Assembly (NCBI GenBank): GCA_004367505.1
Contig: SFCB01000241.1
Location: forward strand, 1 to 43,978
From: Chloroflexi bacterium OHK40
GTDB lineage: Bacteria; Chloroflexota; Chloroflexia; Chloroflexales; Chloroflexaceae
DNA length: 43,978 bases
Direction of reading: 5' to 3'
Below, one piece after another: positions 18,499 to 43,837 of this stretch. The first letter of the stretch is position 1, and each line of letters begins with the position of its first letter. The notes under the pieces were generated by a model. It did not search any database and was not told where the DNA came from. It saw only the letters and a program-made list of their open reading frames with translations. Made by a program: the position numbers and the translations under genes.

Positions 18499-21400
18499 CC
18501 GTCGCTTTCTGACGCGCCCGCTGCCCTGGCTGATCGCTCTTGCCCTGGTGACCGTTCTGGGCGGGGTAACACTTATTGCGCGGATCGCGCTGAATATCGC
18601 CTCGCCCGCGATCAGCCGCTATGATGGCGACCTCGCGGCGCGCGTGCCGGTGAGCTACGATCTCTGGAGCTCCTTCGGGCCCCTGCTGCCGGCAATCAAC
18701 CCGGAGGTGATCGAGGCCGCCGAGGAGCTCGCTCCGCCAGATCCTGCGCCAGGCAACCCGCAGCCCGTCGATACGGTGCCGATCGCTGTGATTGGCCTCG
18801 CCACGCCAACGCCCCAGTTGCCCCTGGCTGTGGTGCCTTCGCCCTCGCCGACCAGCACTGAGGCGCCTCCTCCCAGCCCGGTTGTCTCGCCCACCGCCAC
18901 CGCTACGCGCACAACCGAGCCCATCCGCGCCCCCACACAGCCGCCGCCATCCCGCACCGCTGCCCCGGCCACGGCTACCGCGATCCGGCCCACAACGACG
19001 CCGGTGACCGCGCCTGATCCGCCTTCTGGCGCGCCGCCTACCAGCACGCCGTTGCCCCCAACCGCTACCACGGCGCCACCCAGGCCTCCCAATACGCCAG
19101 CGCCCACCAGCACGCTGGTGCCCACCAGCCCGCCCGCGCCTACCAGCACGCCCGGGCCAACCAGTACGCCCTTGCCTACCAGTACGCCCACGCCGCCCCT
19201 GCTGAGTTTCGTGGACAGCGCGATTACCGCCAGTGAGACGCAGGGCTCGGCTACCGTGAGGCTACGCCTGAGCGACGCCTATTTCCTGCCAGTGACGGTT
19301 GCCTATGCCACCGGAGGTGGCAGTGCGACGCCTGACAGCGACTATACCGCCACCAGTGGCACGCTTACCTTCACGCCCGGCGAGCGTGAGAAGAGCTTCA
19401 CCATCCCGATCCGCGCCGATGCGCTCGATGAGCCGAACGAGACGGTGGAGATCAGCCTGTCGGTCCTTGGCAATGCCATCCTCAGCGGGCCATCCACCGC
19501 TGTGCTGACGATCACCGATAGCAACGCCCCGCCGCTCGTGCGTTTCTCCGGTGCTGCCCGGACCGTCGCCGAGAGTGTGGGGACGACGACGCTTACGGTC
19601 GAGTTGAGCGAGCCGAGCGCCATCGATGTCTCGGTGCCGTTTGTTGTGGGTGGCACGGCCGCCTCGGACGATCACAACTTGCGCGCTAGCGCGCTGGTGA
19701 TCCCGGCCGGCAGCACCAGCGCGCGCCTGCGCTTCTCTGTCACCGCCGATTGGGTGGACGAAGACGATGAAAGCGTGGTGGTGACGCTCGGGACGCCCCG
19801 GAACGCCGATCTCAGCAGCCCCAGCGTCTTCGTGCTGACGATCACCGATGATGATACCGCCGCTGTGACGCTGCGCCCGGATACGCTGGAGCTCGAAGAG
19901 GGCGAGGATGGTATCTACAGCATCGTGCTGGAGAGCCAGCCGGTTGATCCGGTGACGGTCGACCTGCTGCCCGATGGCCAGTTGCTCCTGCTCTCGCAGA
20001 GCCAGTTGACCTTTACGGCGTCGAACTGGAATACCCCGCGCCAGGTGCGGCTGAGGGCGATCGATGACGCAATCGATGAGACCAGCCCGCATACCGGCAC
20101 GCTGCGCCACAGTGTGCGCAGCCTCGACCCGCGCTACAACGGGATCGCCACGGCGCCCCTCACGGCGCGAATCATCGATGATGATACCGCCGGAGTGATC
20201 ATCACCGCTCCACCGCTGCTCACACTCACCGAGGCCGACGGGCCGGGCCAGAGCCAGACCTATACGATCGTGCTTCGCAGCCAGCCGGTGGCACCGGTGA
20301 CGCTGAGCCTCGGTTCCCCAGATGGGCAGGTGCTGGTGAGCCCGGCGACGCTGACAATCGCGCCCGAGAGTTGGAATACGCCGCGCACGATAACGGTCAC
20401 CGCCATCGACGATCCCGTGGATGAGCGGGGTGGCCGTGGGGGCCGCCCGGCCACCGATCCACATACTGGCACGGTAGCCCACGTGGTTAGCAGCGCCGAC
20501 CCGCTCTACAACGGGTTTGCAGTGGCCGACCTCGTCTGGGCGATCACCGACAACGATAGCGCCGGGGTGATCATCGAGCCGCGTACCGTTGCTGTCAGCG
20601 AGGCGTTGCCTGCTGTTGCGGCCACCTACGCTGTGCGCCTGGATAGCCAGCCGACGGCACCGGTGACGGTAGCAATCAACTTCGACCCTCAGGAACTGGT
20701 TGTTCAGGGGGGGCCTACCAGCCCGGTGACGCTTTCCTTCCAGCCCGAGGACTGGAACGTGGCACAGACGGTTCGTGTGGCACCGCTCGACGATGCGATC
20801 GACGAAGATGGGCGTGGGAACACGCTCCCCCATACAAGCACGATCACCCATGCGCTGGTGAGCGCCGACCCGAACTACGACGATGCCACGAGTGGCCTTC
20901 CCGTCGATGATGTAACGGTCTCGATCACCGACAATGACACCGCTGGCGTCACGATCACGCCACCCGCGCCGGCAACGGTGGTTGAGGGCGCTACGATCAC
21001 CTATACGCTCCGCCTGGACAGCCAGCCGACGTCGCCGGTCGATCTGTCGCTGAGCATCACGCCGACAGGTGTAGCCAGCGTGGCGCCGGTTTCGCTCACG
21101 GTTGGCACGGGGCCAGACGACTGGCGACAGTCGCGAACGATCACTATCACGGCGCTCGACGATGCCTTCGACGGGCCCGCCGAGAGCTTGCCGGTGACGG
21201 TCTCCCACGTGCTGGCGAGCGCCGATCCGAACTATGACGATACCACGAGCGGCTTCGCCGTCGATGATGTGGTGATCTCCGTTATCGACAACGATACGGC
21301 CGGGATCAACCTCGGGCCGCTCTCCATCACCACCCCCCTCAGTGAGACGGTGACGGCCCCGAACCATTCCGCCACCTTCACTGTGACGCTGCGGAGCCGC

Positions 21401-30897: not shown

Positions 30898-32580
30898 ATG
30901 GCAGTGATCGCTCGACCGCGCGGAGCCGTACGCGAACAGGTGGCCGACCGCTTCGCCACCGAGAAGCGGCTCGCCGGGCTGAACATTCTGGTCGCTTTCC
31001 TCGCCCTGGCCATTGGCGGCCTGATGGGCGTGCTGCAGGTCCTTGAATACAACGGCATCGACCTCTACCGGGCGGTGAAGCCGGTATTGCCAGGTGGTTA
31101 CTACCAGGGTCTCACGCTGCACGGCGTGCTCAATGTGCTCGTCTTCACCACCTTCTACATCATTGGCTTTCTGACGCTGATCGCCGCCATGTCCTTCGAT
31201 CGGCCCCTGGCGAGCGGGCGGCTGGCATGGGTCACCTTCTGGCTGATGCTCGCGGGCCTGCTGGTGGCGGCGGTACCGATCCTGCTCAACCGGGCCACCG
31301 TGCTCTTCACCTTCTACCCACCGCTCAAGGCCGATGGCTTCTACTACCTGGGCCTCACGCTGGTGGTGGCGAGCACCTGGCTGTTGCTCGTGAACCTGGC
31401 GCTCACCTACCGGGCCTGGCGGGCGGCCAATCCGGGCGCGAAGATCCCACTGGCGGCCTTCATGTCGATCATCACCATGACGATGTGGACGATCGCGACG
31501 TTCGGTATCGCCACCGAGATGCTCTTCCTGCTGATCCCCTGGGCCTTCGGCCTGGTGCCAGGCACCGATGTGATCCTGGCGCGCACGCTCTTCTGGTTTA
31601 CGGGCCACCCGATCGTCTACTTCTGGCTGCTTCCGGCCTACATCTCCTGGTACACCATGGTGCCGCGCCTGGCGGGGGGGCGGCTCTTCAGCGAGCCGAT
31701 GGCGCGAGTGGCCTTTGTGCTCTTTCTGGTGCTCTCGGTGCCGATCGGGATCCACCACCAGTACACCGACCCGGGCATCTCGGAGATCTGGAAGCTGGTC
31801 CACTTCATCTTTACGGTGGGCGTCTTCTTCCCGAGCCTGCTGACGTTCTTCAACGTGGTCGCCTCGCTGGAGAACAGCGGGCGAGCCCGGGGCGGTAAGG
31901 GGTGGCTGGCCTGGATCTTCGCGCTGCCCTGGAATGAGCCGGCCTTTACCACGCAGGTCTTCGCGATGCTGCTCTTCGCCTTCGGTGGGGCCGGTGGCGT
32001 GATCAACGCCTCGTACAACCTGAACCTGGTGGTGCACAATACGGCCTGGATCTCGGGGCACTTCCACCTGACGGTGGGATCGGCGGTAGCGCTCACCTTT
32101 ATGGGGATCACCTACTGGCTGGTGCCGCTGATCACCGGACGGGCGCTGTGGAGCAGGGGGCTCGCGCTTGCCCAGGCCTGGCTCTGGCTGATCGGGATGG
32201 TCACCTTCTCCCACTTTATGCATATGCTCGGCCTGCTCGGGATGCCGCGCCGAACGATGATCGGCGCCGCGCCCTACATTCAGCCCGAGTGGCAGGCGCT
32301 TCTGCCCTTTACCCTCGTGGGCGGGTTGCTGATGTTCGCCAGCGCGATCTGTTACTATCTGAATATGCTGATGACGATCACCCGGGGCAGGCCCGAGCCA
32401 GACCAGGAGGTGCCCTTCAGCCGGGCGGTCTCTGGCCCGGAGGATGTACCGGCGGCGCTGGACCGCTTCACGCCCTGGGTGGTGACGGCCCTGCTACTTG
32501 TGGCGATCAACTACGGGCCGACGCTCTACTATCTCGTCAGCACCGGTCGCTTCAACATCACGGGGCTCTCGCCCTGGTGA
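30898..32580 (+). CDS. cbaA: ba3-type cytochrome c oxidase subunit I
   Basis: This 560-aa haem-copper oxidase catalytic subunit has about 13 TM helices. Visible ligands are His75 (TLHGVLN, low-spin haem), the CuB ligand His237 with cross-linked Tyr241 (GHPIVYFW), His286-His287 (HHQYTD), and His388/His390 (SGHFHLTVG, active-site and low-spin haem). Apart from His75 these sit four residues further on than in Thermus ba3 as I recall it. The type-A residues (XGHPEV glutamate) are absent, which fits class B. The ATG at 30898 is used; a GTG at 30886 is an alternative. It ends convergently with the anti-sigma gene. Confidence 0.95.
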
Positions 32581-32658: not shown

Positions 32659-33414
32659 CTACAGCCTGACGCCGATGACGCGGGGGCTGGTGGGGCCAGG
32701 GCTGCCGCCGAGGGGCTCCGTGGTGATACCGACAGCCTGATAGCGCGCGAGGGGCTCGGGGGCGAGCACGAGTAGTGTGCCGCTACCCTGCTCGTCTACC
32801 CGGAAGGTTCCGCCGCTCACGCGCGTATCGCCACGGACGAGCCACAGCTGATAGACGCGGTCGGCTGAGAGGGCGGGCATGCCCTCGACACGCAGCGCCG
32901 CCACGCGGCCGGCATAGTCGATAAGCAGTGTGCCACTGGCTCCGGGCACGTCGGCGCTGAGCGGGATCTGCCTGAGCTCGGCGGAGTCGAGCAGCATAGC
33001 GAGGATCTGGCGGTCCTGGAGCCGGTTGGCCTGCTCGCGTGCCAGCGTGGCGTGAAGCGCGAGATTCCAGGCGAGCAGGCCGATCAGCGCGATCAGGATG
33101 GCAAGGCGCGGCCTCCAGAGCGTGGACGCGGCACCGGGCCGTAGGGGGCGGGCATGATCCCGTTCGTTGGCGGCGCGCTCTACGGCATCGATCACCGCGC
33201 GCCGGAGTTGTGGGCTGGGGGCGGCCTCGGCGACGCCAAGGGGCAGCAGCTGGGCAACGCGAATGTAGGCCTCCAGGGTGCGTCGGCAGGTGGCGCAGCG
33301 CTCGATGTGGGCGTCGATCTGACTGCGGGTCGCGGGGTCGTACTCGCCGAGGGCGTAGGCTGCCAGCAGCGGCTCGATTGCGGCGCAGTCGGGGGAGGTT
33401 TTGTCGGGGTCCAT
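32659..33414 (-). CDS. Zinc-type anti-sigma factor with RskA-like C-domain
   Basis: This 251-aa membrane anti-sigma factor has an N-terminal zinc-binding (ZAS) helix bundle with HIERCATC (HxxxCxxC) around residues 35-42 that would hold the sigma factor. A single TM follows (LAILIALIGLLAWNLALHATL). The extracytoplasmic RskA-type beta domain carries RVYQLWLVRGDTRVSGGTFRVDEQGSG. The ATG at 33414 has AAGGG about 9 nt upstream. The adjacent ECF sigma gene lies 115 bp upstream on the same strand and is the evident partner. Release would depend on proteolysis or redox change at the zinc site. Confidence 0.9.
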   Translation of the reverse strand: MDPDKTSPDCAAIEPLLAAYALGEYDPATRSQIDAHIERCATCRRTLEAYIRVAQLLPLGVAEAAPSPQLRRAVIDAVERAANERDHARPLRPGAASTLWRPRLAILIALIGLLAWNLALHATLAREQANRLQDRQILAMLLDSAELRQIPLSADVPGASGTLLIDYAGRVAALRVEGMPALSADRVYQLWLVRGDTRVSGGTFRVDEQGSGTLLVLAPEPLARYQAVGITTEPLGGSPGPTSPRVIGVRL

Positions 33415-33529
33415 GGTGCTACACCCTTGTGCCGGGCTTCGGCTGGCGCCTGACGGTCGCGCCGGGCGCATGGCTCCGGAATGAACCTGGCCCGGAGTCC
33501 GATATGCTCAGCGCAAAGCGCTCCAGGCA

Positions 33530-34162
33530 TCAGATGTCAGGGTCGGCGAGCAGGTGGGCCAGGGCGACGCGAAGCTTGGCCATGCCAAGCCGTAGCCGGG
33601 TATGGACGGTACCAAGGGGGGCGCGAAGTTGATCGGCGGCCTCCTGGCGGGTTAGGCCGCCGAAATAGAGCAACTCGATCACTTCGCGCTGGGCGGGCGG
33701 GAGCTCGGCGAGAGCGGCGCGCACTTCGCGCCGGAGCAGGCTGATTTCGATCTCCGGGTCGTTCGGGGTGAGGTGGACCAGCGCGCGTTCCAGGCTGCTC
33801 TCGCGGGCGCGAGCCTGCTGGCGGCGGCTACGCAGTTCGTCGATCGCGCGGTGATGGGTGATGGCCAGCAGCCAGGTGACCAGGCTCCCCCGCTCAGGGC
33901 GATAGCGGGTGGCATTGCGCCAGCATCCCACAAACACATCCTGCACGATCTCCTCAGCGGCGCCCCTATCGCCCACCATACGTAGCGCCACGCTGAAGAC
34001 GATCGGGCCGTAGCGGTCGTAGAGGGCCGCTGTAGCCACCAGAGGTTGCTCCTGGAGGAGCCGCGAGAGATCCGCATCCTCGGGGTGGAGCCGCGCGCGC
34101 GAAGTCGTATCGCCGGGCCGCTCGATGCCGCTCACCGGTGGCGCTCCTGTCGATCGAAACAC
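33530..34162 (-). CDS. ECF RNA polymerase sigma factor (SigK-like)
   Basis: This 210-aa group 4 sigma factor has region 2 (LYDRYGPIVFSVALRMVGDRGAAEEIVQDVFVGCWRNA, then SLVTWLLAITHHRAIDELRSRR), which binds and melts the -10 element. Region 4 (LAELPPAQREVIELLYFGGLTRQEAADQLRAPLGTVHTRLRLGMAKLR) is the -35-binding helix-turn-helix. It pairs with the downstream zinc anti-sigma gene. It diverges from the VWA-FHA gene of the secretion locus over 180 bp, so it could control that locus or the nearby oxidase; neither is shown by the sequence. Confidence 0.93.
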   Translation of the reverse strand: MFRSTGAPPVSGIERPGDTTSRARLHPEDADLSRLLQEQPLVATAALYDRYGPIVFSVALRMVGDRGAAEEIVQDVFVGCWRNATRYRPERGSLVTWLLAITHHRAIDELRSRRQQARARESSLERALVHLTPNDPEIEISLLRREVRAALAELPPAQREVIELLYFGGLTRQEAADQLRAPLGTVHTRLRLGMAKLRVALAHLLADPDI

Positions 34163-34342: not shown

Positions 34343-35737
34343 ATGCTGGCCCTGTTCCGCGCCGCCGTGCTCGTTATCAGCCTGGTGTTGCTGACCCCTG
34401 GCCCGCTCTCCGCCCAGGCGCCCATACGCCTCGTCGAGGCTGGGGATGGTCACCTGACGGTTGAGCTCACCTGCTCCGGCAGGGTGTCCGGGCCGCTGAG
34501 CGTCATATTGGACGACAGGCCCCCGGTGCCGGCTACCGTGCTTGCCGGCGCTGCTCAGGCCCTCGTGCTGGTGGTAGACGTGAGCCCCGCGATGGGCGCC
34601 GCTGGGACGCCACACAGCACGCGGTTGGCCGACGCGGCTCTTGGCGCGAGGATGCTCCTGGAGCGGGCGCCAGCCGGCACCCCGGTTGCGGTCGTGAGCT
34701 TTGACCGGGTAGCCCGGACGGTGCTACCGCCCACGGTGGATCGCGCGGCCGCGCTCGCCGCCGTGGCCGCCCTTGCCATACCGCCGGCCGAGGAGCCCGC
34801 CGGGCCCTACGCGCTCGCCGAGGGGTTACGGCTTGGTGCGGCGCTGCTCGCTGCGACCCCAACCCGGGAGCAGGCGCTGGTGGCCTTCGCTGCGGGTGTG
34901 CCGGGCCTCGCGATCGACACCGCTGCATTGCGCGCCGAGCTCGCCCCCACGCTTAGCGTGGCCATCGTAGGGCTGGGCGCCGATGCCACGGGTGCCTCTG
35001 CCGATGGCGGCTCGCTCGTCGCGATCGCTTCCAACCTTGGGGCCGCCTACATCCCCTTCCACACCACCGACCTTCACGACCTGCCCGCGCTGGCGGCGGA
35101 GTTGGAGCGCCGGGTTGCCGCGCTGCTCACACCGGAAGGCCCGCTTCGGCTGCGGGCAAAGATCGGTGAGCTGACACGCGGTCCCCACCGTCTGACGGTG
35201 AGCGGGTGCGGTGCGCCTGCGACGCTCGACTTCGCGGTGCCCGGGGTGGCGCTACCGAGCGCGATGGGCGCCGTACTCGCGGTGGGGTTCGTTGCCGCGC
35301 TGGGGCTCGCCTGGTGGCGCGTCCGCCGGCCCGGGGCGGCTATGGTCGCCCGAAGCGAGACGGCGCGGAGGAAGCAGGCGGTTGACGTGACGACGGCCCG
35401 ACGGGCCAGCGGCCAGCATCCAGGCCAGGAGCTCAGGGTCATCGTGTGGGACGGAGCGCGGCGGGGCGTCTACCCGCTCGCCCGGCGGCAGTCCCTGGTC
35501 GGGCGCGATCCGGCCTGTGAGATCAGCATCGATAGCGAGTGGGTCTCGGGGCTTCACGCGCGCCTGACCCGCGTTGGGGATCAGCTGGAGATCACCGACC
35601 TGGAGAGCACCAATGGCACCTTCATCGGAGAGGAGGCGCGGCCGTTGCGGCCCGGCGTGCCCGAGCCGCTGGCCCCGGGAGTGCCCGTCCTCCTCGGGCG
35701 AACGGTACGGCTGGAGCTTCGTAGCGGGGGCGAGTGA
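34343..35737 (+). CDS. VWA-TM-FHA protein of the type VII-like locus
   Basis: This 464-aa protein has a signal peptide (cleavage near SAQA). An extracytoplasmic von Willebrand A-like domain follows (about 60-260) with a partial MIDAS motif DVSPA at Asp79; the canonical DxSxS has its last Ser replaced by Ala. A TM lies at about 305-325, then a basic linker. The C-terminal FHA domain (about 374-460) has VGRDPACEIS, SGLHARL and STNGTFIGE, the residues that grip phospho-threonine. Topology puts VWA outside and FHA in the cytoplasm. The ATG has GGAGG 8 nt upstream. Its stop overlaps the kinase start (TGATG), so a kinase-FHA partnership is likely. Confidence 0.88.
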   Translation: MLALFRAAVLVISLVLLTPGPLSAQAPIRLVEAGDGHLTVELTCSGRVSGPLSVILDDRPPVPATVLAGAAQALVLVVDVSPAMGAAGTPHSTRLADAALGARMLLERAPAGTPVAVVSFDRVARTVLPPTVDRAAALAAVAALAIPPAEEPAGPYALAEGLRLGAALLAATPTREQALVAFAAGVPGLAIDTAALRAELAPTLSVAIVGLGADATGASADGGSLVAIASNLGAAYIPFHTTDLHDLPALAAELERRVAALLTPEGPLRLRAKIGELTRGPHRLTVSGCGAPATLDFAVPGVALPSAMGAVLAVGFVAALGLAWWRVRRPGAAMVARSETARRKQAVDVTTARRASGQHPGQELRVIVWDGARRGVYPLARRQSLVGRDPACEISIDSEWVSGLHARLTRVGDQLEITDLESTNGTFIGEEARPLRPGVPEPLAPGVPVLLGRTVRLELRSGGE

Positions 35738-36684
35738 TGATCAGCCCGGGGCGACGGATCGGTCCCTTCGAACTGATCGGCCGGATTGGCCACGGGGGGC
35801 AGGGGGAGGTGTGGCTCGCCCGACCACACGGAGGCAGAGCGGTACGCTGGCACGCCACTCGGGCCTGGCTGTGGGCGTGGTGGCGCGCCGGGTTGATCGA
35901 CCTTGCCCTGGCATGCCGGCTGCGGCTCGCCGCGCTGAAGCTTGCCTGGCCCGGAATGGAAGCGAGCCTGCACGATGAGCACGGGCACCTTGCGTCTCCC
36001 GGCGCCGGGCATCCACACCTTACCAGCCTTTTTGGGCAGCGCTACGGGAGCGCGGGTTGCGATCTGGGGTTCACCGCACCAGGGGCCGGGGCGGCGCGCC
36101 GGCTCTACCTTGCCCTGGCCTACGAGCCCGGGGTCACCCTGGAGCGTGTGCTGCGCCATCGAGGTGTGCTGGCGCTGCCCCGGGCCATGGCAGTGCTACA
36201 GCAGGTTGCCGATGCGCTGGGGCACCTGCACCGGCGCGGCATCGTTCACCACGACGTGCGCGCGGCGAACATCGTGCTCCGCGCGGGCTACACCGAGCCA
36301 CCTCACGCGGTACTGATCGACCTGGGCGCGGCCGAGGTGCCGCTCGCGCCGCGACGGTGGGCGATCTACGGCGCCGAGGGACACATGCCGCCCGAGCGAG
36401 TTGCGCCCTGCCCGGCCCCACCCACACCTGCCGTCGATATCTACGGGATGGGGATGCTTCTACGCGCCCTGACAGCCCGCGCGCTGGTCTCGCCGGAGCT
36501 TGCCAGGCTGATCGCCGACGCAACCATGCCCGATCCGGCGGATCGCCTCGCGGCCCTCCCCGACATGGCAGCGCTCCAGGCGCGGTTGCGCTGTTTGCCG
36601 GAGGCAGGCCAGGGCCACCCCTCCCCGCGCCGCGACGGCCTGGAAGGGTGGGACAGAACTCGGTCAAGGAGGAGCACGGTCTGA
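35737..36684 (+). CDS. Atypical Ser/Thr protein kinase
   Basis: This 315-aa kinase-fold protein has the glycine loop GRIGHGGQGEVWLA (16-28). The ATP-binding Lys is probably Lys68 (AALKLAW), unusually far from the loop because of a roughly 28-residue Trp/Leu/Arg-rich insertion (RAWLWAWWRAGLIDLALA). The catalytic loop is HHDVRAANIVL in place of HRDxKxxN: Asp and Asn are kept, but Arg replaces Lys. The metal motif is DLG and the APE motif is PPE. It could be active but atypical, or a pseudokinase. No clear TM is present. The ATG at 35737 overlaps the preceding stop, and its own stop overlaps the lipoprotein ATG. Natural substrates would be Thr sites read by the two FHA proteins. Confidence 0.85.
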   Translation: MISPGRRIGPFELIGRIGHGGQGEVWLARPHGGRAVRWHATRAWLWAWWRAGLIDLALACRLRLAALKLAWPGMEASLHDEHGHLASPGAGHPHLTSLFGQRYGSAGCDLGFTAPGAGAARRLYLALAYEPGVTLERVLRHRGVLALPRAMAVLQQVADALGHLHRRGIVHHDVRAANIVLRAGYTEPPHAVLIDLGAAEVPLAPRRWAIYGAEGHMPPERVAPCPAPPTPAVDIYGMGMLLRALTARALVSPELARLIADATMPDPADRLAALPDMAALQARLRCLPEAGQGHPSPRRDGLEGWDRTRSRRSTV

Positions 36685-37493
36685 TGCGGAGACTTCACTT
36701 TTTGCCAGTCGCAGCGCTCGTGGCCCTTCTGGGTGGATGCGGTGCGCCAGCGTTGGCGCCGCCTGTACCATCGCCGACGGTCGAGCCCGCGCTGATGCTG
36801 GCAGGGGCCGCGCTCGATCAGGGCGAGCACGCCAGGGCGATCGACTTGCTGGGACCCCTGGCGAGCCGTGATGCTGATTCCGCCCGGCTGCTGGCTCGGG
36901 CGCGGAGCGCCCTTGTGAGCGGGGTGCTCGCTGCCCCGGCCACGCCGGCGGAACTGCGCGCCGCCCTCGATCTCGTGCTGCTCGCTCGCCCCCTGGCAGC
37001 GGGCGAGCCCGGGCTCACGGCGACCCTTCGCGTGCAGGAGCAGGAGTTACTTGGCCGGCTCGCGGCGCTCACGGCCCCTGTCGAGCAACCTTCCGCGCCG
37101 GTGCTAGCGCCGCCCACCCCGCAGCCCGCCCCCACAGTTGCCCGGCCAACGGTGCCAACCCGAACGCCAGTTCCGCCGAGCTTTGGCGTCGTACAGCGGC
37201 GCAGCTTCGACGGCAGCGGTGCGAGTGGGCAGTTCGCCTCGTGCATCGACGTGCAGGTTCTGGGGCCGCAGGGGCCAGTAGGCGGAGCGGTGCTCGGGAT
37301 CAACAATGGCCAGCACAACTACCAGAACCAGACCGACCAGAACGGCTACGCGGGGCGCTGCGGGCTCGGGGCCTCGACATGGAGCGTGGTGCTCTTCTGG
37401 ACGCCGTCCGGGGACGTACAGGGCGCGACGACAACCGTGTATGTGAGCGGGGCGCCCGAGCAGCGGGCTGCCGTCGTGTTCCAGGCCCGCTGA
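36684..37493 (+). CDS. Predicted lipoprotein, third gene of VWA-FHA/kinase operon
   Basis: This 269-aa exported protein has a lipoprotein signal (VAALVALLGGC, lipidated Cys19). A helical region follows (about 35-130; repeated-helix character LDQGEHARAIDLLGPLASRDADSARLLARARSAL, TPR-like). A Pro/Thr linker (about 135-170) leads to a C-terminal beta domain with two Cys (CIDVQVLGPQGPVGGAVLGI, GYAGRCGLG) resembling carboxypeptidase-regulatory-like folds. AGGAGG lies about 9 nt upstream of the ATG, which overlaps the kinase stop (TGATG). The frame is open for 627 nt upstream but is a shadow of the kinase. Function unknown; a surface partner of the VWA domain is inferred. Confidence 0.82.
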   Translation: MRRLHFLPVAALVALLGGCGAPALAPPVPSPTVEPALMLAGAALDQGEHARAIDLLGPLASRDADSARLLARARSALVSGVLAAPATPAELRAALDLVLLARPLAAGEPGLTATLRVQEQELLGRLAALTAPVEQPSAPVLAPPTPQPAPTVARPTVPTRTPVPPSFGVVQRRSFDGSGASGQFASCIDVQVLGPQGPVGGAVLGINNGQHNYQNQTDQNGYAGRCGLGASTWSVVLFWTPSGDVQGATTTVYVSGAPEQRAAVVFQAR

Positions 37494-37585
37494 GTGGAGC
37501 TCTGGCTGCCTGGAGTCGTGAGCCAGGGCTAGTGCCCGCATCGGAAGGCACAGCCTGCCGCGCGGCGGCGAGCCTCTGAACTCGC

Positions 37586-37602
37586 GCAGGTGGGGGACCT
37601 GC
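37586..37602. terminator. Small hairpin GCAGGT-GGGGG-ACCTGC
   Basis: A perfect 6-bp inverted repeat surrounds a GGGGG loop. It lies in the 265-bp gap where the two convergent secretion operons end. The layout is the same as the dyad in repeat array B. Confidence 0.35.
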
Positions 37603-37679
37603 CCGTGTGTACCGGATGGCCACGAGTGTGGCGTTGGACGCAAGCCGGGGGATGCGTGCGTGCGTGCCAGGTGGTACGT

Positions 37680-37704
37680 CACACCACCCGACCGGGATGG
37701 TGTG
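37680..37704. terminator. Probable bidirectional terminator between convergent operons
   Basis: CACACCACCCG (37680-37690) pairs with CGGG-A-TGGTGTG (37693-37704), an 11-bp stem with one bulged A and a 2-nt minimal loop. GTTG follows on the plus strand. It sits between the lipoprotein stop and the YukD-FHA stop. Confidence 0.4.
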
Positions 37705-37758
37705 GTTGAGGGGTGTGCCGGAACCCTAGCCGCCATGCGTGATCCGGCAGAAAGGGCC

Positions 37759-38418
37759 TCAGCCGCCACAGGGTTCGCCAAAGAGGGTGATGGAGAGGGG
37801 AAGTCCACCGTCGCCGAGGATCAGTTCGTCGTTGTGGCTGAGCGGGTGCGGCGTATTGGCGGCGAGCTCCACGCCGTTGAGCAGTGTCAGGAGATCGGGG
37901 CGATCGGTGTGGACGATCCAGGTTCCCCGGCTGTCCGGTAGGATCGTGCAGTGGGGGCGATTCGAGACGAAGCGGAAGCTGGAGGCTCGGCGCTCAAGGA
38001 GTGCGAGCTCGTGCTGATGCGCTTCGGGGTTGAGCAGCGCGAGGGCCTGAAGCAGCCAGGCGCGCGTGAGCGCCGCGCCGCGCCGGGGAAGTGCGAGCTC
38101 GCTCCCATCGGGCAACCCGATCAGGCAACGCTGCCCCACGGTGCCCGAGCGCGGCGTAAGCCAGAGGTGGCCCCCGCTGCCAACGCCCTGCTGGCTCAGG
38201 GAGGGTTCAGGGGAGAGCCGTCGACCACTGGCCGTTCCCAGCCGCAGCGTGTAATCCCGTTCAAGGGAGCTGGCTTCAGGGAGCCCGGCGCCTGCCAGCA
38301 GCAGCGGGATGAGTTGGGCCGGCGGGCCGTCCTCGCACACGATAGTGGCCGTGCATTCGGCTCCGGCATGAACCCAGTGCAGTGTAACGGCGAGCGTGTT
38401 GTCGCGGCGCTGGTGCAT
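37759..38418 (-). CDS. YukD/EsaB-like ubiquitin-fold plus FHA fusion
   Basis: This 219-aa cytoplasmic protein has two parts. Residues about 8-88 fit the YukD/EsaB ubiquitin-like fold of type VII secretion (LAVTLHWVHAGAECTATI, AQLIPLLLAGAGLP, YTLRLGTASGRRLSPEPSLSQQGVGSGGHLWL). Residues about 125-215 are FHA-like: FRFVSNRPHCTILPDSRGTWIV, then LLNGVELAANTPHPLSHNDELILGD. The phospho-threonine pocket residues are partly degenerate. In Firmicutes YukD is free-standing and FHA domains sit on the ATPase; here they are fused to each other. Its ATG directly follows the EccC stop (TAA-ATG) with GGAGGAG just upstream. Confidence 0.75.
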   Translation of the reverse strand: MHQRRDNTLAVTLHWVHAGAECTATIVCEDGPPAQLIPLLLAGAGLPEASSLERDYTLRLGTASGRRLSPEPSLSQQGVGSGGHLWLTPRSGTVGQRCLIGLPDGSELALPRRGAALTRAWLLQALALLNPEAHQHELALLERRASSFRFVSNRPHCTILPDSRGTWIVHTDRPDLLTLLNGVELAANTPHPLSHNDELILGDGGLPLSITLFGEPCGG

Positions 38419-41400
38419 TTACGGCTCCTCCGTGCGCGCGACCTGGACAATCTGCGGATCTTCGTCGCCGACGAGCAGTGCCCGCCCGGGCGGCTGCTCG
38501 GCCCACCGCTGATCGGAAAGCGGGAGGGAAACGCCGAGAATCCGGGTGCCCGGATCATAACGCCCGGGCCAGAGGATCAGCCCGGCGCGCCCGGCGTCCA
38601 GGGCGCGGAGCAGTTCATCGTCGGCGTAGCTGCTCGCGGTGGCCAGAATCACGTGCTCGCCGCGTTGTCCACCGAGTTGAGCGATCTCGCAGAGCATGGC
38701 AAAGAGGTTCGGCGCGCCGTAGCTCTGGGTGAACTGGCCGCGCATCCGCTCGCGGCACAGGGTGTAGTCGTCGATGAGAATGACCCGGCGCATTGCCGCA
38801 CCAGGGGCGCGCTCGGCGGCGAGGGCGGCACCAAGGGCCGTGGCGCTCGCCTCATCTGTCACCATGTGGGTGAGATGGGGCAGGTTGCCCAGCGTCGCAA
38901 GGCCTCCGCGCGGCCCATCGATCACCGCGAGCTGTAGCTCACGTGGATCGTAGCGCGCCACGAGCGCGCGCGCGGCGCAGAGGAGCACCCCAGTCTTTCC
39001 GCTGCGGCGTGGACCAACCACCAGCGCATGGGGCGTCTCGTGGCCGAGGCGGAGCCATGCGGCACTCAGGCCCATGTGCTCGCGCCCGATCGGGGCAAGC
39101 AGCGCGCCAGCGTTGCCAGGGGCCGGCGCGCCCACAAGTTCGGTGAGGCATACCCGTTCGGGTAACAGCCGGATCGGTGGCGGCGTGGTGCATAGGGCGG
39201 CGGAGTGATTCTGCCATTGGGCAGTGAGGGCGGCGGCGCGGCGGCGCAGCGCCACCGGTCCGCTATCCTCAAGCATGGCTACTACGGCCTCCTCTGCGCT
39301 GGTGTGCTCAGCCCCCGTCAGTGTCGGCAGCGCCACCTGCATCTCCAGGGCCCCGTCGTCGCCACGGGCCACGAGGGCGCGCCCGGGTGTGCCTGCTGGG
39401 AGCGGGGCGCTTACCCGCACGCCGAGCAGTTCTGCATAATCGTAGAGCTCGGCCTGGCGCAAGGCCACCCGCTGATCGAGCGCGGTGAGCAGCCGGTGGC
39501 CGATCTCGGTGGCCCTGTCGGCGCTAACCACGAGGTAGACGCCGCAGGAACGGCCGAGCCCCGCGATCCGGGCAAGTTCATCGGTCAATTCACTGTCGCT
39601 GTAGCGGTCGCGAAGCTCTTCGCGCAGCACGGCGAGCTTATCGATTACCACTAGGACCGCCGGGGCAGGCTGGCCGGTTTGCGCGCGGAGTGCCGCCAGG
39701 TCGGCGGCGTCTGCGGCCCGCAGTTGCTCCTGGCGCGTGCGGATCAGTGTGTTGAGGAGGTGCAGCAGGCGGCGCACGCGCTCGTGCTCTGTAGCCAGGA
39801 TGTGGGCGCCCACATGCGGGAGTCCCGCCAGTGGGCTGAGTTCCTGCCCGCTAGCATCGACGAGATAGCACCACAGGTCGCGTGGGGAGTGCCGGCGGGC
39901 AAGGCCAAGTACGAGCGTTCGCAGCAGGGTCGTCTTGCCGCTGCCAGGCGCGCCGACCACGGCGAGGTGGCCGTCGGTGAGCCCCAGGCTGAAAGGAGCC
40001 TGCCGGCTCTGCTGAGGGATGTCCAGCAGGCCGATGGGCTGGCGGAGCCAGCTCCCGGATCCTGCCGCCGGGTCCCAGAGGTGGGCTGCCCCCTCCGGAT
40101 CCACCGTCGCGAGCGAGAGGTACGCCGGCAGAGGTGGCTGCCAGATTGGCCGGGCCTCCCAGCGTGGGTGGGGGCGTTCGCGGCGCGCCTGTGCATCGCA
40201 GAGAGCTGCCACGAGCACGTCGAGATCGGTTGTGGTCGTCCGGGTGGCCGGTGTTGGGGAAGGTACCGGCTGCTCACGGTCGCCCTGGAGGAAGCTGACC
40301 CTGGGAGTACGGCTGTTTGCCCCTGGCCGGTAAGCCTGGGTCACGTGGGCCACCTGGATGAGTTCCACGCGATCGCCTGAGCGCATATAGGCCCGGCCGG
40401 GCGCGCTGGCGGGCAGGAAGGCCGCATCGGGCTTGCGCAGCATCTCGCGGCTATCGTCGGCGCCGCCGAGGCGCAGGGCGATGAAGTAGCTAAGCTGGCT
40501 GCGGATCTCATCGGTGACGGCGCGGGCCGGTTGTTGCGTGGCGATCAGCAGGTGGACACCGAGGGAGCGGCCTTGCTTGACCACCCGCACCAGTTCGGCC
40601 ACGAACTCGGGCTGACTACGGGCCAGTTCGTCGAACTCATCGACCACGATCAGCAGGTTGGGCAATGGTGCCTGCTCGTGGGCTGCGGCCTGGGCGCGGT
40701 AATCGGCGATGTGTTCGACCTTCGTGCCACTGGTAGTTGCCGCCGTGTTGAGGAGCGCCTTGCGCCGGCGCAGTTCGCTGGTGATCGCCGTCATTGCCCG
40801 GGCGGCCAGGCGGCCCTCCAGGTCGGTCACGAGCCCGGCGGTGTGGGGCAGCGGAGCAAACATGCGCAGGGTGGCCCCGCCCTTAAAGTCGATCAGCAGG
40901 AACTGAAGGCGCTCGGGTGCGTGGGTGACGGCCAGAGAGGCCAGGATACTCTGCAGAAGCACGCTCTTGCCCGCGCCCGTCGCCCCGGCGATGATGCCGT
41001 GGGGGCCATGATGGTGCTCGTTCAGGTCGAGGTAGACCGGCGTTCCACCTGCTCCGGCCCCAATGGGCACGTCTGGCCGCCACGCCCCCCGGGGAGGCTC
41101 GGCCCACCAGCAAGGCTGCTCAAGCTCGGCGGGGTTCTGGATGCCGAGCAGGTCCAGCAGGCGCACGCTGCGAGGCAACTCCTGGGCGCCGCCGCGCTCA
41201 ACAAGGCGCACGCTGGCCAGGCGGCGGGCCAGGCGGTCGCTGAGATCGAGCTCGGCACGGTCGGGCGTGAAGCGATCATCGCACCAGTCACCGCCTGCGG
41301 TTCCCCAGCGGGCGCCGTATTCGTCCAGCTCAACCATCGCAGCGCAGCCCTCGGGGAGCGCCTGCCAGCTTGGGGCAAGCACAACGACAGAGATGCCGAG

Positions 41401-42435
41401 CGGACCACCGTAGTCGATCAGTTCGGTAATGGCCGGGTAGCTCTGGAGCAACTCGGGGCCATCGACAATCAGCAGCAGGTGGGGCCGGGCGGTCCCGTCA
41501 GGCGAATCGCGCCGGGTCTGCTCGCGGCGCTGGCTGAGGGTGTCGAGTAGGGCGCTGGCGAGGCGCCCGGCCCGCTCGGGCTCGCCTCCGAGCATGCGCT
41601 CAGCTGGCGATGGATCGTCGTCCAGGGGAGTGCAGTGAGGCAGCCAGCCTGCCCAGGCCCACGATTGGGCAGCCCCAGGCGCATACAGCAGGGCCAGGCG
41701 CAGGTCGCCTGGGCCGTGGAGCACGGCGGCCTGCCAGATCAGGGCCCGGGTGAGGGCGTGAGTGTCGGCCCGAGGGCCAGCGATCCCGAGCGAGCCAGAC
41801 CGGCCAAGTGGGATGCAGATCGGCACCTGCCGCAAGGTGGCATACTCGGCCGCCGTGCGGAAGAGCCTTCGGTCCACGGCGCCGTCGCGCTGAGGATCTG
41901 GCACCCGGGCCTGGCTAGCCGCGGGCAAGCTGCCCACTCCTACGCGCAGATCGAGCCAGTCATCGTCGTCCGGGCGCCGCTCCCACAGGCGGGGCTCGGG
42001 GCCGGACGTTCCCCCGGCAGCCCCCGCGATCACAAAGAGCTCGAGCGGGTCGGGCGCGAGGAATCGCCGGGCGCTGCGCTCCTGCTCGTGGAGGCGGCGC
42101 AGGCGGGCGCGCTGGGCCTCGAGTCGATCTTCGAAGAGGGCGCGCCGCTCGGCGTACTCGGCGGCGGCGCGCCGGGCCGCGCCGCGCTGGCTGATCAGGC
42201 TTGCCGCGATGCCGAGCAGCGCGATCGAGGCGCTGGGTATGGCCGCAGCGAGTGGGCTGCCCCCGTTCAGGGCGGCCGCGCCCGCAAAGACGCCAGCACT
42301 CGCCAGAGGAAGCATGAGGCTGGCCCAGTCCCGGCGCTCGGGCGCGGGCAGGCTGGGCGTCTCGGGGAGCTCCACGCGCTCGGCGTGCCAACGGGGGCGC
42401 ACGCGCGGTGGCCGGTTGAAGCTACACTGTGCCAC
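38419..42435 (-). CDS. eccC: EccC/EssC-type FtsK/SpoIIIE triple-ATPase of type VII secretion
   Basis: This 1,338-aa membrane ATPase drives export of WXG100-type substrates. Two N-terminal TMs (about 40-85) lead to a helical stalk and the EccC signature RLWERRPDDDDWLDLRVGVG. Three ATPase domains follow. D1 has GATGAGKS (Lys490) and a full Walker B VVDEFDE. D2 has GAPGSGKT (Lys834) with a weakened Walker B (VVIDKLAVL). D3 has GPRRSGKT (Lys1147) with LIDD. As in other EccC proteins, D1 is the likely active motor and D2/D3 the substrate-binding, regulatory ones. There are no N-terminal FHA domains, unlike EssC. The start is GTG at 42435, AGGAGG 6 nt upstream, overlapping the previous stop (TAGTG). 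EccC-a and -b are fused, not split. Confidence 0.95.
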   Translation of the reverse strand: MAQCSFNRPPRVRPRWHAERVELPETPSLPAPERRDWASLMLPLASAGVFAGAAALNGGSPLAAAIPSASIALLGIAASLISQRGAARRAAAEYAERRALFEDRLEAQRARLRRLHEQERSARRFLAPDPLELFVIAGAAGGTSGPEPRLWERRPDDDDWLDLRVGVGSLPAASQARVPDPQRDGAVDRRLFRTAAEYATLRQVPICIPLGRSGSLGIAGPRADTHALTRALIWQAAVLHGPGDLRLALLYAPGAAQSWAWAGWLPHCTPLDDDPSPAERMLGGEPERAGRLASALLDTLSQRREQTRRDSPDGTARPHLLLIVDGPELLQSYPAITELIDYGGPLGISVVVLAPSWQALPEGCAAMVELDEYGARWGTAGGDWCDDRFTPDRAELDLSDRLARRLASVRLVERGGAQELPRSVRLLDLLGIQNPAELEQPCWWAEPPRGAWRPDVPIGAGAGGTPVYLDLNEHHHGPHGIIAGATGAGKSVLLQSILASLAVTHAPERLQFLLIDFKGGATLRMFAPLPHTAGLVTDLEGRLAARAMTAITSELRRRKALLNTAATTSGTKVEHIADYRAQAAAHEQAPLPNLLIVVDEFDELARSQPEFVAELVRVVKQGRSLGVHLLIATQQPARAVTDEIRSQLSYFIALRLGGADDSREMLRKPDAAFLPASAPGRAYMRSGDRVELIQVAHVTQAYRPGANSRTPRVSFLQGDREQPVPSPTPATRTTTTDLDVLVAALCDAQARRERPHPRWEARPIWQPPLPAYLSLATVDPEGAAHLWDPAAGSGSWLRQPIGLLDIPQQSRQAPFSLGLTDGHLAVVGAPGSGKTTLLRTLVLGLARRHSPRDLWCYLVDASGQELSPLAGLPHVGAHILATEHERVRRLLHLLNTLIRTRQEQLRAADAADLAALRAQTGQPAPAVLVVIDKLAVLREELRDRYSDSELTDELARIAGLGRSCGVYLVVSADRATEIGHRLLTALDQRVALRQAELYDYAELLGVRVSAPLPAGTPGRALVARGDDGALEMQVALPTLTGAEHTSAEEAVVAMLEDSGPVALRRRAAALTAQWQNHSAALCTTPPPIRLLPERVCLTELVGAPAPGNAGALLAPIGREHMGLSAAWLRLGHETPHALVVGPRRSGKTGVLLCAARALVARYDPRELQLAVIDGPRGGLATLGNLPHLTHMVTDEASATALGAALAAERAPGAAMRRVILIDDYTLCRERMRGQFTQSYGAPNLFAMLCEIAQLGGQRGEHVILATASSYADDELLRALDAGRAGLILWPGRYDPGTRILGVSLPLSDQRWAEQPPGRALLVGDEDPQIVQVARTEEP

Positions 42436-42770
42436 TAGAGCCTCCTGCGGCGCTCCCACTCCTCACGCTCGCGCTCGCGGCGGCGCTGCTCGGTGCGGGC
42501 CTGCTCACTGGCGCGCCCGATCTGCTCGGCGGCGCCGCGACAGACGGCGGCCAGGGCGTGCAGTTCATAACGCAGGGCAGCCTGGCCCTGCTCAAAGCGC
42601 AGGCGCGCCGCGCCGCGCCACTCGGCCAGCACAGCCTCCGCGTGGCGCGTCTCCTGGGCGAGCAACTGCTCTACCTCGGCCGCAGCTCGGCGGAGCATAC
42701 CGGCTGCCTCTTCGGCGGCGCGCTGGTCCCAGCGCACGTCCTCCCAGTTTGGTTCATCATGGCGTGGCAT
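42435..42770 (-). CDS. Small helical WxG protein, WXG100-like
   Basis: This 111-aa protein is almost wholly helical. Helix 1 (EEAAGMLRRAAAEVEQLLAQETRHAEAVL) meets a turn with EWRGAARLRF, a WxG motif with the downstream aromatic residue. Helix 2 (YELHALAAVCRGAAEQIGRASEQ) then runs into a very basic coiled tail (RREREREEWERRRRL). This is the WXG100 hairpin plan with a charged C-terminus in place of the usual YxxxD/E tail. The ATG at 42770 has GGAGG 7 nt upstream and lies inside the end of the preceding gene; its stop overlaps the eccC GTG. It may be a substrate, or a chaperone that stays with the ATPase. Confidence 0.7.
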   Translation of the reverse strand: MPRHDEPNWEDVRWDQRAAEEAAGMLRRAAAEVEQLLAQETRHAEAVLAEWRGAARLRFEQGQAALRYELHALAAVCRGAAEQIGRASEQARTEQRRREREREEWERRRRL

Positions 42771-43512
42771 TGGGCTGCCTCCGTGGCACAGAGCGGCCCC
42801 GTGGTCGCCGGCCGAATCGTGGCTGGCAGGGTGGTGGGGAGGGGGCGGGCCGCGACTCGGGCATGTTGGATGGGCTCCCCGGCGGCTGGGCTCCACTGCC
42901 GGTCTGTTTGACGCCGGCTGCGGCCACGAGGAGCACGGCGATGAGCCAAAGTGCGTAGGACCGGAGATCCTCCGCTTGAGATACCTCAGGCCCGTGGGAT
43001 AGCTCCTGGCCGAAACGCGCTGGCCGGCGAGGAGGTGGCGGGGGCGCGGGCCGCTGCCTGGGCATAGCGGGTGGCCCCTCTGGGGGCTGGGCTCCACTGC
43101 CGATCGGTTTGACGCCGGCTGCGGCTACGAGGAGCACGGCGATGAGCCAAAGTGCGTAGGACCGCAGCGCCTCCTCTCTGGAGCTTTCTAGCCCCGGGGC
43201 TGGCGCGCCACGCTTGAGGCTGTGCATCGCGGGTAGCAGCGCGCCCACGGCGCAGCACGCATCCGCAAGGCGCAGGCCTGCCGCGGTGCGCGCCGCCAGT
43301 TCACCCAGATCGCCCTTGTGCTGTGCCGCAGCAGTGAGGCGCCCGGCAAGCCTGGCCAGATCGGGGACGGGGTACTCGATGCAGCGGGCGGCGAGGCGCT
43401 CGCCCACTGCATCTACCTGGCGGGCAACCTGCTCCAGGCGTATGGCGCTGTCATGGGCAGCCCGGGCGTAGGCCGCCAGCGCCTCGGGAACGCCCCCGAT
43501 CGTAGTGCTCAT
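42757..43512 (-). CDS. Helical-hairpin protein with duplicated TM/Pro-rich segment
   Basis: This 251-aa protein begins with about 95 residues of helix resembling ESX-type helical hairpins (VPEALAAYARAAHDSAIRLEQVARQVDAVGERLAAR, then LAGRLTAAAQHKGDLGELAARTAAGLRLADA) but without a WxG motif. Two nearly identical TM segments (SYALWLIAVLLVAAAGVK, about 118-135 and 185-202) follow, each trailed by a Gly/Pro-rich segment. They come from an in-frame 201-bp tandem duplication. The C-terminus is Arg/Pro-rich. The ATG at 43512 has AGAGG 8 nt upstream. It lies between two WXG genes, 43 bp after the first, and overlaps the next by 14 nt. I know no family for it; a membrane-bound ESX component is plausible. 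Confidence 0.75.
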   Translation of the reverse strand: MSTTIGGVPEALAAYARAAHDSAIRLEQVARQVDAVGERLAARCIEYPVPDLARLAGRLTAAAQHKGDLGELAARTAAGLRLADACCAVGALLPAMHSLKRGAPAPGLESSREEALRSYALWLIAVLLVAAAGVKPIGSGAQPPEGPPAMPRQRPAPPPPPRRPARFGQELSHGPEVSQAEDLRSYALWLIAVLLVAAAGVKQTGSGAQPPGSPSNMPESRPAPSPPPCQPRFGRRPRGRSVPRRQPNATP

Positions 43513-43555
43513 GGCTCAACCTCTGGCCGCCGGCTGCACGGTCAGGCTGTGCGCA

Positions 43556-43837
43556 TCACAGATTGCCGCCGGCCTGCATAATATTCTGGTTAATCTGGTG
43601 GACCTGGCGTCGCAGATCCTCGAGAGCCTGCTGGACACCCAGTAGCTTCTGGTGAGTCTCTGCCCAATAAGCTCGAAACTCGGCAGCCCGGCGCCCATCC
43701 CAGTTGTTGGGGTCGGAGAGGATCTGGCCCTGGGCATTCAATTCACCGATCTGCTGGAGCAGCGGGCCGGTGACGATGCGCTGGAAGGCGTTGATCGCCT
43801 CGCGGGCGGTGCTGGTCGAAAGAACACGGTCACTCAT
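43556..43837 (-). CDS. WXG100 family protein (ESAT-6/CFP-10-like)
   Basis: This 93-aa helical-hairpin protein is the typical small substrate of type VII secretion. Helix 1 is STAREAINAFQRIVTGPLLQQIGELNAQGQIL. The turn has NNWDGRRAAEFRAYW, a clear WxG motif with following aromatic residues. Helix 2 is QKLLGVQQALEDLRRQVHQINQNIMQAGG. The length is right on the family mean. The ATG at 43837 is chosen because GAGGAGGA lies about 8 nt upstream; the 22 codons before it are unlikely protein. It is the first gene of the minus-strand secretion operon. Confidence 0.93.
   Translation of the reverse strand: MSDRVLSTSTAREAINAFQRIVTGPLLQQIGELNAQGQILSDPNNWDGRRAAEFRAYWAETHQKLLGVQQALEDLRRQVHQINQNIMQAGGNL

What the first reader, a model, noticed from the sequence alone, without database searches (positions are those of the whole stretch)
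34343..43837. Reduced type VII-like secretion locus wired with FHA, VWA and kinase proteins
A WXG100 protein, a second WxG hairpin protein, a helical/TM protein, a one-piece three-ATPase EccC and a YukD-FHA fusion form one tight operon. It converges with a second operon of VWA-TM-FHA, atypical kinase and lipoprotein. EccB, EccD, EccE and MycP (T7SSa) and EssA/EssB (T7SSb) were not recognised. This looks like a third, phospho-threonine-controlled arrangement in a likely Chloroflexota genome. Membership and orientation are seen; joint function is inferred.
Basis: partly seen in the sequence, partly recalled or inferred. Interest (0 to 1): 0.85.

Follow-up and report, generated by a model that had tools for sequence, protein, structure and literature searches.

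The report
Chloroflexota type VII secretion locus
A bacterium of the phylum Chloroflexota carries a trimmed-down type VII protein-export gene set next to a kinase and a phospho-binding sensor gene; it is a new variant of a machine family already known from Gram-positive bacteria, and related bacteria carry a lipase-like cargo that this copy lacks.

Summary
The minus-strand genes (WXG100, hairpin/TM, second WXG100, EccC, YukD-FHA) and the convergent VWA-TM-FHA, kinase and lipoprotein genes are real and their order recurs in relatives. The window is a whole contig, so nothing beyond 43,978 can be read. EccB and EssB were not detected in 41 of 41 related genomes, with working controls.

Three things change the reading. 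(1) The 'helical/TM protein' shares its N-terminal hairpin with a candidate effector of relatives, which goes on into a lipase-like fold that the window lacks. The window also lacks an EspG-fold gene found in 16 of 26 loci. (2) Regulatory genes lie near EccC in 12 of 26 informative loci, not all. (3) EccC with kinase, PPM phosphatase, vWA, EspG-like or FHA proteins is already published as T7SSc-T7SSj (Garrett 2024), without Chloroflexota.

So: a Chloroflexota variant of the kinase-linked T7SS, closest in parts list to T7SSc, with fused YukD-FHA and membrane VWA-FHA. Phospho-threonine control is plausible (VWA-FHA and kinase keep key residues) but untested.

The parts
43556..43837 (-). WXG100 protein (WXGa), 93 aa, WDG turn
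   Evidence: labelled in 23 of 26 informative loci
42757..43512 (-). hairpin protein, 251 aa, with two near-identical hydrophobic segments; its first 84-106 aa match the hairpin of relatives' candidate lipase effector; lipase part absent
   Evidence: full-length homologues
42435..42770 (-). second WXG100-like protein (WXGb), 111 aa, WRG turn; below the Pfam cut-off
38419..42435 (-). EccC ATPase, no FHA seen, two N-terminal hydrophobic stretches, three Walker A motifs; Asp-Glu Walker B only in the first
37759..38418 (-). YukD-FHA fusion (ubiquitin-like plus non-canonical FHA)
34343..35737 (+). signal - VWA - TM - FHA protein; FHA has GR, SxxH and NGT
35734..36684 (+). protein kinase; beta-3 Lys, catalytic Asp and Asn, DFG-type Asp present; no TM stretch
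36684..37493 (+). lipoprotein of unknown family
   Evidence: homologues near EccC in other genera

Best explanation
The locus encodes a type VII secretion machine of a Chloroflexota lineage, secondarily reduced in this genome. EccC would form the membrane ATPase channel. YukD-FHA would dock on it through its ubiquitin-like part, as the EccD domain does in ESX-5 (stated in PMC11217815). The two WXG100 proteins and the hairpin protein would be substrate and partners; in relatives the hairpin protein carries a lipase-like domain and is probably escorted by an EspG-fold chaperone. The VWA-TM-FHA protein (VWA outside, FHA inside), with the lipoprotein and kinase, would tie an envelope signal to assembly or activity of the machine through phospho-threonine binding; some relatives add a PP2C phosphatase. 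Shown here: gene content, order, recurrence, motifs, predicted folds of the EspG-like and effector homologues. Inferred: secretion, every protein contact, topology beyond hydropathy, phosphorylation, the signal, lipase activity.
For: EccC passes the EccCa and EccCb models. The order WXGa-[EspG-fold]-effector-WXGb-EccC-YukD-FHA recurs. Of 26 informative loci a kinase lies near EccC in 9, a VWA protein in 11, PP2C in 4; expected kinases per 22 kb 0.098, binomial 0.0006, which ignores relatedness and uses this genome's kinase density for all. In the sister EccC lineage 10 of 10 loci have at least one such gene near (tree); several of these loci also seeded the profiles. VWA-FHA keeps GR and SxxH in 9 of 9 aligned proteins; window kinase keeps Lys, Asp, Asn, Asp. 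EspG fold (of L079): Foldseek 1.2e-12, VIA Z 20.3, 3.4 A over 250 residues. Effector (L077): lipase-type fold Z 10.5, 3.5 A over 169; EsxA-like hairpin Z 8.7, 2.4 A over 81; candidate Ser, Asp and His invariant in 10 of 10.
Against: 14 of 26 informative loci have none of these genes near EccC: all 7 of genus g10, all 3 of genus g4 (Chloroploca), L039, L099, L080 (lipoprotein only) and L058 (short flank). L035, L038 and L086 have VWA-FHA but no kinase label. The window's YukD-FHA has no GR in its FHA, and the VWA motif DxSxS is complete in 0 of 9. EspG-fold: 0 hits in the own genome. Effector model is weak (pLDDT 66.8); Foldseek gave no match at E<=0.001, and the tool warns that Z under about 13 for helical hairpins may mean only a common arrangement.
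Confidence: 0.62

Rival explanations
1. It is a plain member of published T7SSc in Chloroflexota, not a variant of its own.
For: T7SSc as published: WXG100, YukD-like, ATPase without FHA, kinase, vWA, PPM phosphatase, EspG-like. Across Chloroflexales loci each of these kinds is found near an EccC.
Against: Published TscE is a cytoplasmic vWA, TscB a small protein, TscD has a TM, and there is one WXG100; here vWA-TM-FHA, YukD-FHA, a kinase without TM and two WXG100 proteins. No T7SSc sequence could be compared.
Confidence: 0.25
2. The regulatory operon is an independent envelope module that merely sits beside the T7SS genes in some genera.
For: Separate convergent operon; none of its kinds near EccC in 14 of 26 loci; G006 has a VWA-FHA homologue on another contig and none near EccC (L059/L099).
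Against: Near EccC it occurs convergent (window, L034, L035, L038, L045, L077, L078, L086), divergent upstream (L082, L083) and in line (L057); in the sister lineage FHA, VWA, kinase and PP2C genes mostly follow EccC. I looked near EccC only, so places elsewhere are not counted apart.
Confidence: 0.2
3. The window copy is decaying and no longer works.
For: No EspG-fold hit, no lipase hit (without a positive control), a short hairpin protein with a 184-nt duplication, copies 78% identical.
Against: EccC, WXG100, YukD-FHA, VWA-FHA and kinase are open and keep motifs. EspG-fold is undetected also in 5 of 5 g5 genomes, whose effector is full length (530-542 aa).
Confidence: 0.2
4. The short hairpin protein is not decayed but a swapped, membrane-acting effector: targeting hairpin plus two hydrophobic repeats.
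For: Tails of this family vary: 13 of 16 labelled proteins have GHSMG, L081, L082 and L083 do not. The repeats are in frame (201 nt apart) and nearly identical in the hydrophobic part. A membrane-depolarising T7SS toxin, EsxX, is reported (PMC12744356, listing only).
Against: No Pfam match; a duplication also fits decay.
Confidence: 0.25

Closest known systems
T7SSc (Garrett et al. 2024, PMC11217815; abstract, sections 5, 15, 16 and found passages seen)
   Same: EccC without FHA, WXG100, YukD-like domain, kinase, vWA; PP2C and EspG-fold proteins in some or many relatives; EssB and EccB not found
   Different: Chloroflexota not covered ('chloroflex' 0 times in the main text); two WXG100; YukD fused to FHA; vWA fused to TM and FHA; window kinase without TM; window without EspG-fold hit and with no PP2C label within 9 kb
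T7SSe, T7SSf, T7SSj (same paper)
   Same: separate FHA-domain component; T7SSe has two WXG100
   Different: their ATPases carry N-terminal FHA domains; none seen on this EccC
T7SSa (ESX)
   Same: EccC over the EccCa and EccCb cut-offs; two WXG100-like proteins; EspG-fold chaperone in relatives
   Different: EccB not detected; EccD TM domain inconclusive
T7SSb
   Same: YukD-like protein not fused to a membrane domain; FHA and kinase-fold parts; lipase effectors known (TslA; passage and listing)
   Different: EssB not detected; no FHA seen on the ATPase; lipase-like part is C-terminal here, N-terminal in TslA with its C-terminal targeting domain

Membership tests
T7SS in the broad sense | EccC/EssC FtsK-type ATPase | tested here: met
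T7SS in the broad sense | WXG100 protein encoded alongside | tested here: met
   28.7 bits, cut-off 27.3
T7SS in the broad sense | EccC-dependent secretion | not testable with these tools
   needs experiment
T7SSa | EccB | tested here: not met
   0 of 41 genomes, own included (where no built-in control rang); 3 of 3 actinobacterial genomes ring
T7SSa | EccD transmembrane domain | tested here: inconclusive
   0 of 41 over cut-off, one sub-threshold match with 5 stops inside; controls rang below cut-off only
T7SSa | EccE, MycP | not tested
   no search made
T7SSb | EssB/YukC | tested here: not met
   0 of 41 genomes, B. subtilis rings
T7SSb | N-terminal FHA domains on EssC | tested here: not met
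   no FHA among the 25 of 48 Pfam families shown for EccC; 45 residues before the first hydrophobic stretch leave little room
T7SSb | EssA, EsaA | not tested
   no search made
T7SSc | ATPase without FHA, WXG100, YukD-like domain, kinase, vWA | tested here: met
   YukD below cut-off in the window, in 10 of 14 homologues at E<=0.01; architectures differ from the published ones
T7SSc | PPM/PP2C phosphatase at the locus | tested here: inconclusive
   no PP2C label within 9 kb of EccC, but the contig ends just beyond the WXG100 gene; PP2C near in 4 of 26 loci
T7SSc | EspG-like protein | tested here: not met
   0 hits in own genome, G003 and G028 ring; fold shown for relatives
T7SSc | phylogenetic nesting with TscC | not tested
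   no Bacillota T7SSc sequence obtained

The most novel reading that the evidence does not exclude
Chloroflexota evolved their own phospho-gated T7SS in which the ubiquitin-like YukD is itself an FHA-fold adaptor and a membrane VWA-FHA receptor reads the envelope, with polymorphic hairpin effectors (lipase-like, other tails, and in this genome a membrane-acting TM-repeat effector).
Probability: 0.25. Interest if true: 0.7.

Novelty: new variant of a known kind. Interest (0 to 1): 0.5.

Why it matters
The 2024 survey of T7SS types covers Bacillota and Actinomycetota. Here is a gene-level description for Chloroflexales: two EccC lineages, an EspG-fold gene, a candidate lipase effector and a kinase/PP2C/VWA/FHA module. 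Loci of genus g10 (Chloroflexus), with none of the module near EccC, are a natural comparison for asking what phospho-control adds to a T7SS, and cultured Chloroflexus strains make the question testable.

Tried and rejected
Rejected: 'third T7SS type' as a new kind (T7SSc-j are in print). Rejected: obligatory coupling of the module (14 of 26 loci lack it near EccC).

Tried without result: Bacillota T7SSc sequences through plasmids (17 records, none covering 80% of the query) and viral contigs (22 pattern matches, no relative). The first EccB search rang in no built-in control, so a positive control was added. Profile against PDB: only sub-significant alpha/beta-hydrolase hits for the effector (best E 0.023); for the EspG-fold protein an EspG1 chain at E 0.17, fourth of five hits. 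(lipase effector in the own genome) rang nowhere, not even for the window's own hairpin, so it is weak as proof of absence. Papers: one search gave 0; one search gave 2, of which PMC10765036 only notes WXG100 sequences in Chloroflexota and PMC12136450 was seen as a listing. That this arrangement is not in print rests in an open-licence library only.

Limits of the counts: labels come from profiles that I built from some of the same loci; Pfam confirmed a sample. In one search, 5 of 31 unique type-I loci were set aside as uninformative (L036, L043, L050, L074, L090); L045 and L099 were added by hand because their EccC is in pieces; L058 and L080 have under 3 kb beyond EccC but count as 'without'. 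Hits weaker than 1e-10 were not counted (for instance a PP2C-like label at 2e-7 three genes upstream of WXGa in L077). In one search the giant EccC of L066 and L067 were cut to their first 760 residues, L048 and L069 were left out, and 9 actinobacterial rows were used; it is a quick tree with long branches (L057, L058, L060, L073, L094, L108) and uneven composition.
Full report
What is there. The window is the whole contig G000:C128, 43,978 bp, of a 6.93-Mb genome in 301 contigs. On the minus strand from the contig end run WXG100 (43837-43556), a 251-aa hairpin/TM protein (43512-42757), a second WXG100-like protein (42770-42435), EccC (42435-38419) and YukD-FHA (38418-37759). Converging on the plus strand are VWA-TM-FHA (34343-35737), a kinase (35734-36684) and a lipoprotein (36684-37493), each start overlapping the preceding stop. 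Both WXG100 matches of the genome lie here.

Where it belongs. Titles of the closest named hits are Oscillochloris, Chloroploca, Chloroflexus, Viridilinea and Chloroflexaceae, so I place the genome in Chloroflexales, Chloroflexota; its own name is not given. EccC relatives are found in 56 of 100 genomes searched, own included, at E<=1e-30. That G029, G038 and G046 are C. aurantiacus, C. aggregans and a Roseiflexus is recalled from genome lengths and comes from no call.

Core genes in relatives. I called genes with a simple codon-usage script on 40 flanks and 80 named loci and labelled them with profiles made from the window and relatives. The recurring order is WXGa - [EspG-fold] - effector - WXGb - EccC - YukD-FHA; genus g10 has no YukD-FHA label. 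Over 26 informative loci: WXGa 23, WXGb 23, effector 22, YukD-FHA 18, EspG-fold 16. A 12-row EccC alignment has 37-64% identity to the window. In a quick EccC tree the window's lineage (29 rows, SH-aLRT 99) is sister (39 rows, 99) to a second Chloroflexota lineage (10 rows, 100); actinobacterial EccC lie elsewhere. Long branches make details unsure.

EccB, EssB and others. EccB: 0 of 41 genomes; 3 of 3 actinobacterial controls ring. EssB: 0 of 41, B. subtilis rings. EccD TM domain: 0 of 41 over the cut-off, one sub-threshold match with five stops inside, weak controls, so inconclusive. EccE, MycP, EssA and EsaA were not searched.

The EspG-fold protein. 16 of 26 loci have a ~260-aa gene after WXGa. 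Its model (L079, 11 rows) has mean pLDDT 90.5. Foldseek's first 18 rows are all EspG (best 4w4j, 1.2e-12, TM 0.75); VIA-align gives Z 20.3, 3.4 A over 250 residues, the first 14 entries all EspG and the next at Z 5.2. The profile rings in G003 and G028 but in 0 of 6 genomes of the window and genus g5, so I infer a loss in that clade.

The effector. The finding's 'helical/TM protein' corresponds in relatives to longer proteins: of 16 labelled, 13 have a GHSMG motif (519-781 aa) and L081, L082 and L083 do not. Over 10 proteins the GHSMG Ser, two Asp and two His are invariant. Lipase_3 is hit by 9 of 10 members at E<=0.5, weakly (best 3e-4). The model (L077, pLDDT 66.8) resembles EsxA at residues 6-86 (Foldseek probability 1.00 but E 0.5-0.75; Z 8.7 over 81 residues) and fungal-type lipases and feruloyl esterases at 287-505 (Z 10.5 over 169); that these are class-3 lipases is recalled. 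Foldseek has nothing at E<=0.001, and a Z below 13 for a helical hairpin is weak by the tool's own note. The window protein shares the hairpin (43% over 84 aa with L034's; hhalign 97% to the family) but ends in two hydrophobic repeats from a 184-nt duplication, 78% identical. No lipase relative rang elsewhere in the genome (that search did not find the window's hairpin either).

The regulatory genes. Of 31 unique type-I loci 26 are informative: 12 have at least one regulatory gene near EccC (kinase 9, VWA 11, PP2C 4), 14 none. The 12: window, L034, L035, L038, L045, L057, L077, L078, L081, L082, L083, L086. The 14: L052, L053, L054, L084, L085, L087, L088 (genus g10), L041, L079, L089 (g4), L039, L099, L080 (lipoprotein only) and L058 (short flank). 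L035, L038 and L086 have VWA-FHA and lipoprotein but no kinase label. In the second lineage 10 of 10 loci have an FHA, VWA, kinase or PP2C label nearby. Pfam confirmed PP2C in L056, L057 and L073. The genome has 31 kinase matches, 29 over the cut-off, about 0.1 per 22 kb; 9 of 26 gives a binomial 0.0006 that ignores relatedness. The window's VWA-FHA is the only full-length match in its genome; the other two cover the FHA part. Of 24 genomes searched, 22 have some match, many FHA-only; G006 has a longer one on another contig than its EccC.

Motifs. GR and SxxH are kept in 9 of 9 VWA-FHA proteins; the VWA metal motif DxSxS is complete in 0 of 9. The window kinase has the beta-3 Lys, catalytic Asp and Asn and the DFG-type Asp; L034's has that last Asp replaced. 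The FHA of YukD-FHA keeps a Ser and a His-Cys in most rows; the window has no GR, while L044, L045 and L051 have a GR closer to the Ser than usual. Hydropathy: no TM in the window kinase, though longer homologues have one; four stretches in VWA-FHA, of which I read 1-19 as signal and 302-320 as TM, the others lying in or at the edge of the VWA.

How it most likely works. EccC is the translocase; YukD-FHA an adaptor on it; WXG100 proteins and hairpin protein substrates or partners; VWA-TM-FHA, kinase and lipoprotein an envelope sensor that licences the machine through phospho-threonine. None of this is shown by experiment. The first ATPase domain has a Walker B Asp-Glu and the other two do not; that other EccC proteins are alike is recalled.

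What is known. Garrett et al. 2024 (PMC11217815: abstract, sections 5, 15, 16 and passages) describe T7SSc-T7SSj with kinases, PPM phosphatases, FHA and vWA proteins and raise phospho-control; 'chloroflex' occurs 0 times in the main text. A kinase beside YukD and an FtsK-like ATPase in low-GC Gram-positives was noted in 2006 (PMC1779556, passages). WXG100 proteins or T7SS in Chloroflexi are noted in PMC3935865, PMC4010439, PMC10765036 and PMC3482391 (passages). So the kind is known, and the arrangement is a variant in a phylum for which I found no such description.

Verdict. Real, recurrent, probably reduced in this genome; new variant of a known kind; interest 0.5.

Noticed in passing
L066:6971-15811 and L067:7400-16117: Giant EccC-like proteins of about 2,900-2,950 aa; one search shows open frames of 2,874-3,067 aa in several related genomes with repeated matches to the ATPase region. 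An EspG-profile label lies near the one in L066.
   Followed up: partly
window 32659-34135: ECF sigma factor and RskA-type anti-sigma gene divergent from the VWA-FHA gene. The gene at 30940-32580, a cytochrome oxidase subunit by eye, has a similar-looking neighbour in g5 loci.
   Followed up: partly
window 18473-23965: 1,830-aa protein with Calx-beta repeats, likely a surface protein.
   Followed up: partly
L082:6833-9835 and L083:6198-9707: Second T7SS copies in two g5 genomes whose hairpin protein has another tail instead of the lipase (no Pfam match for L082); NYN/PIN-like by eye only. A 276-288-aa gene between WXGb and effector there may be a divergent EspG, not tested.
   Followed up: no
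L103: Second-lineage T7SS locus on a contig titled as an Arenicella MAG; it groups with Chloroflexota EccC, perhaps misbinned.
   Followed up: no
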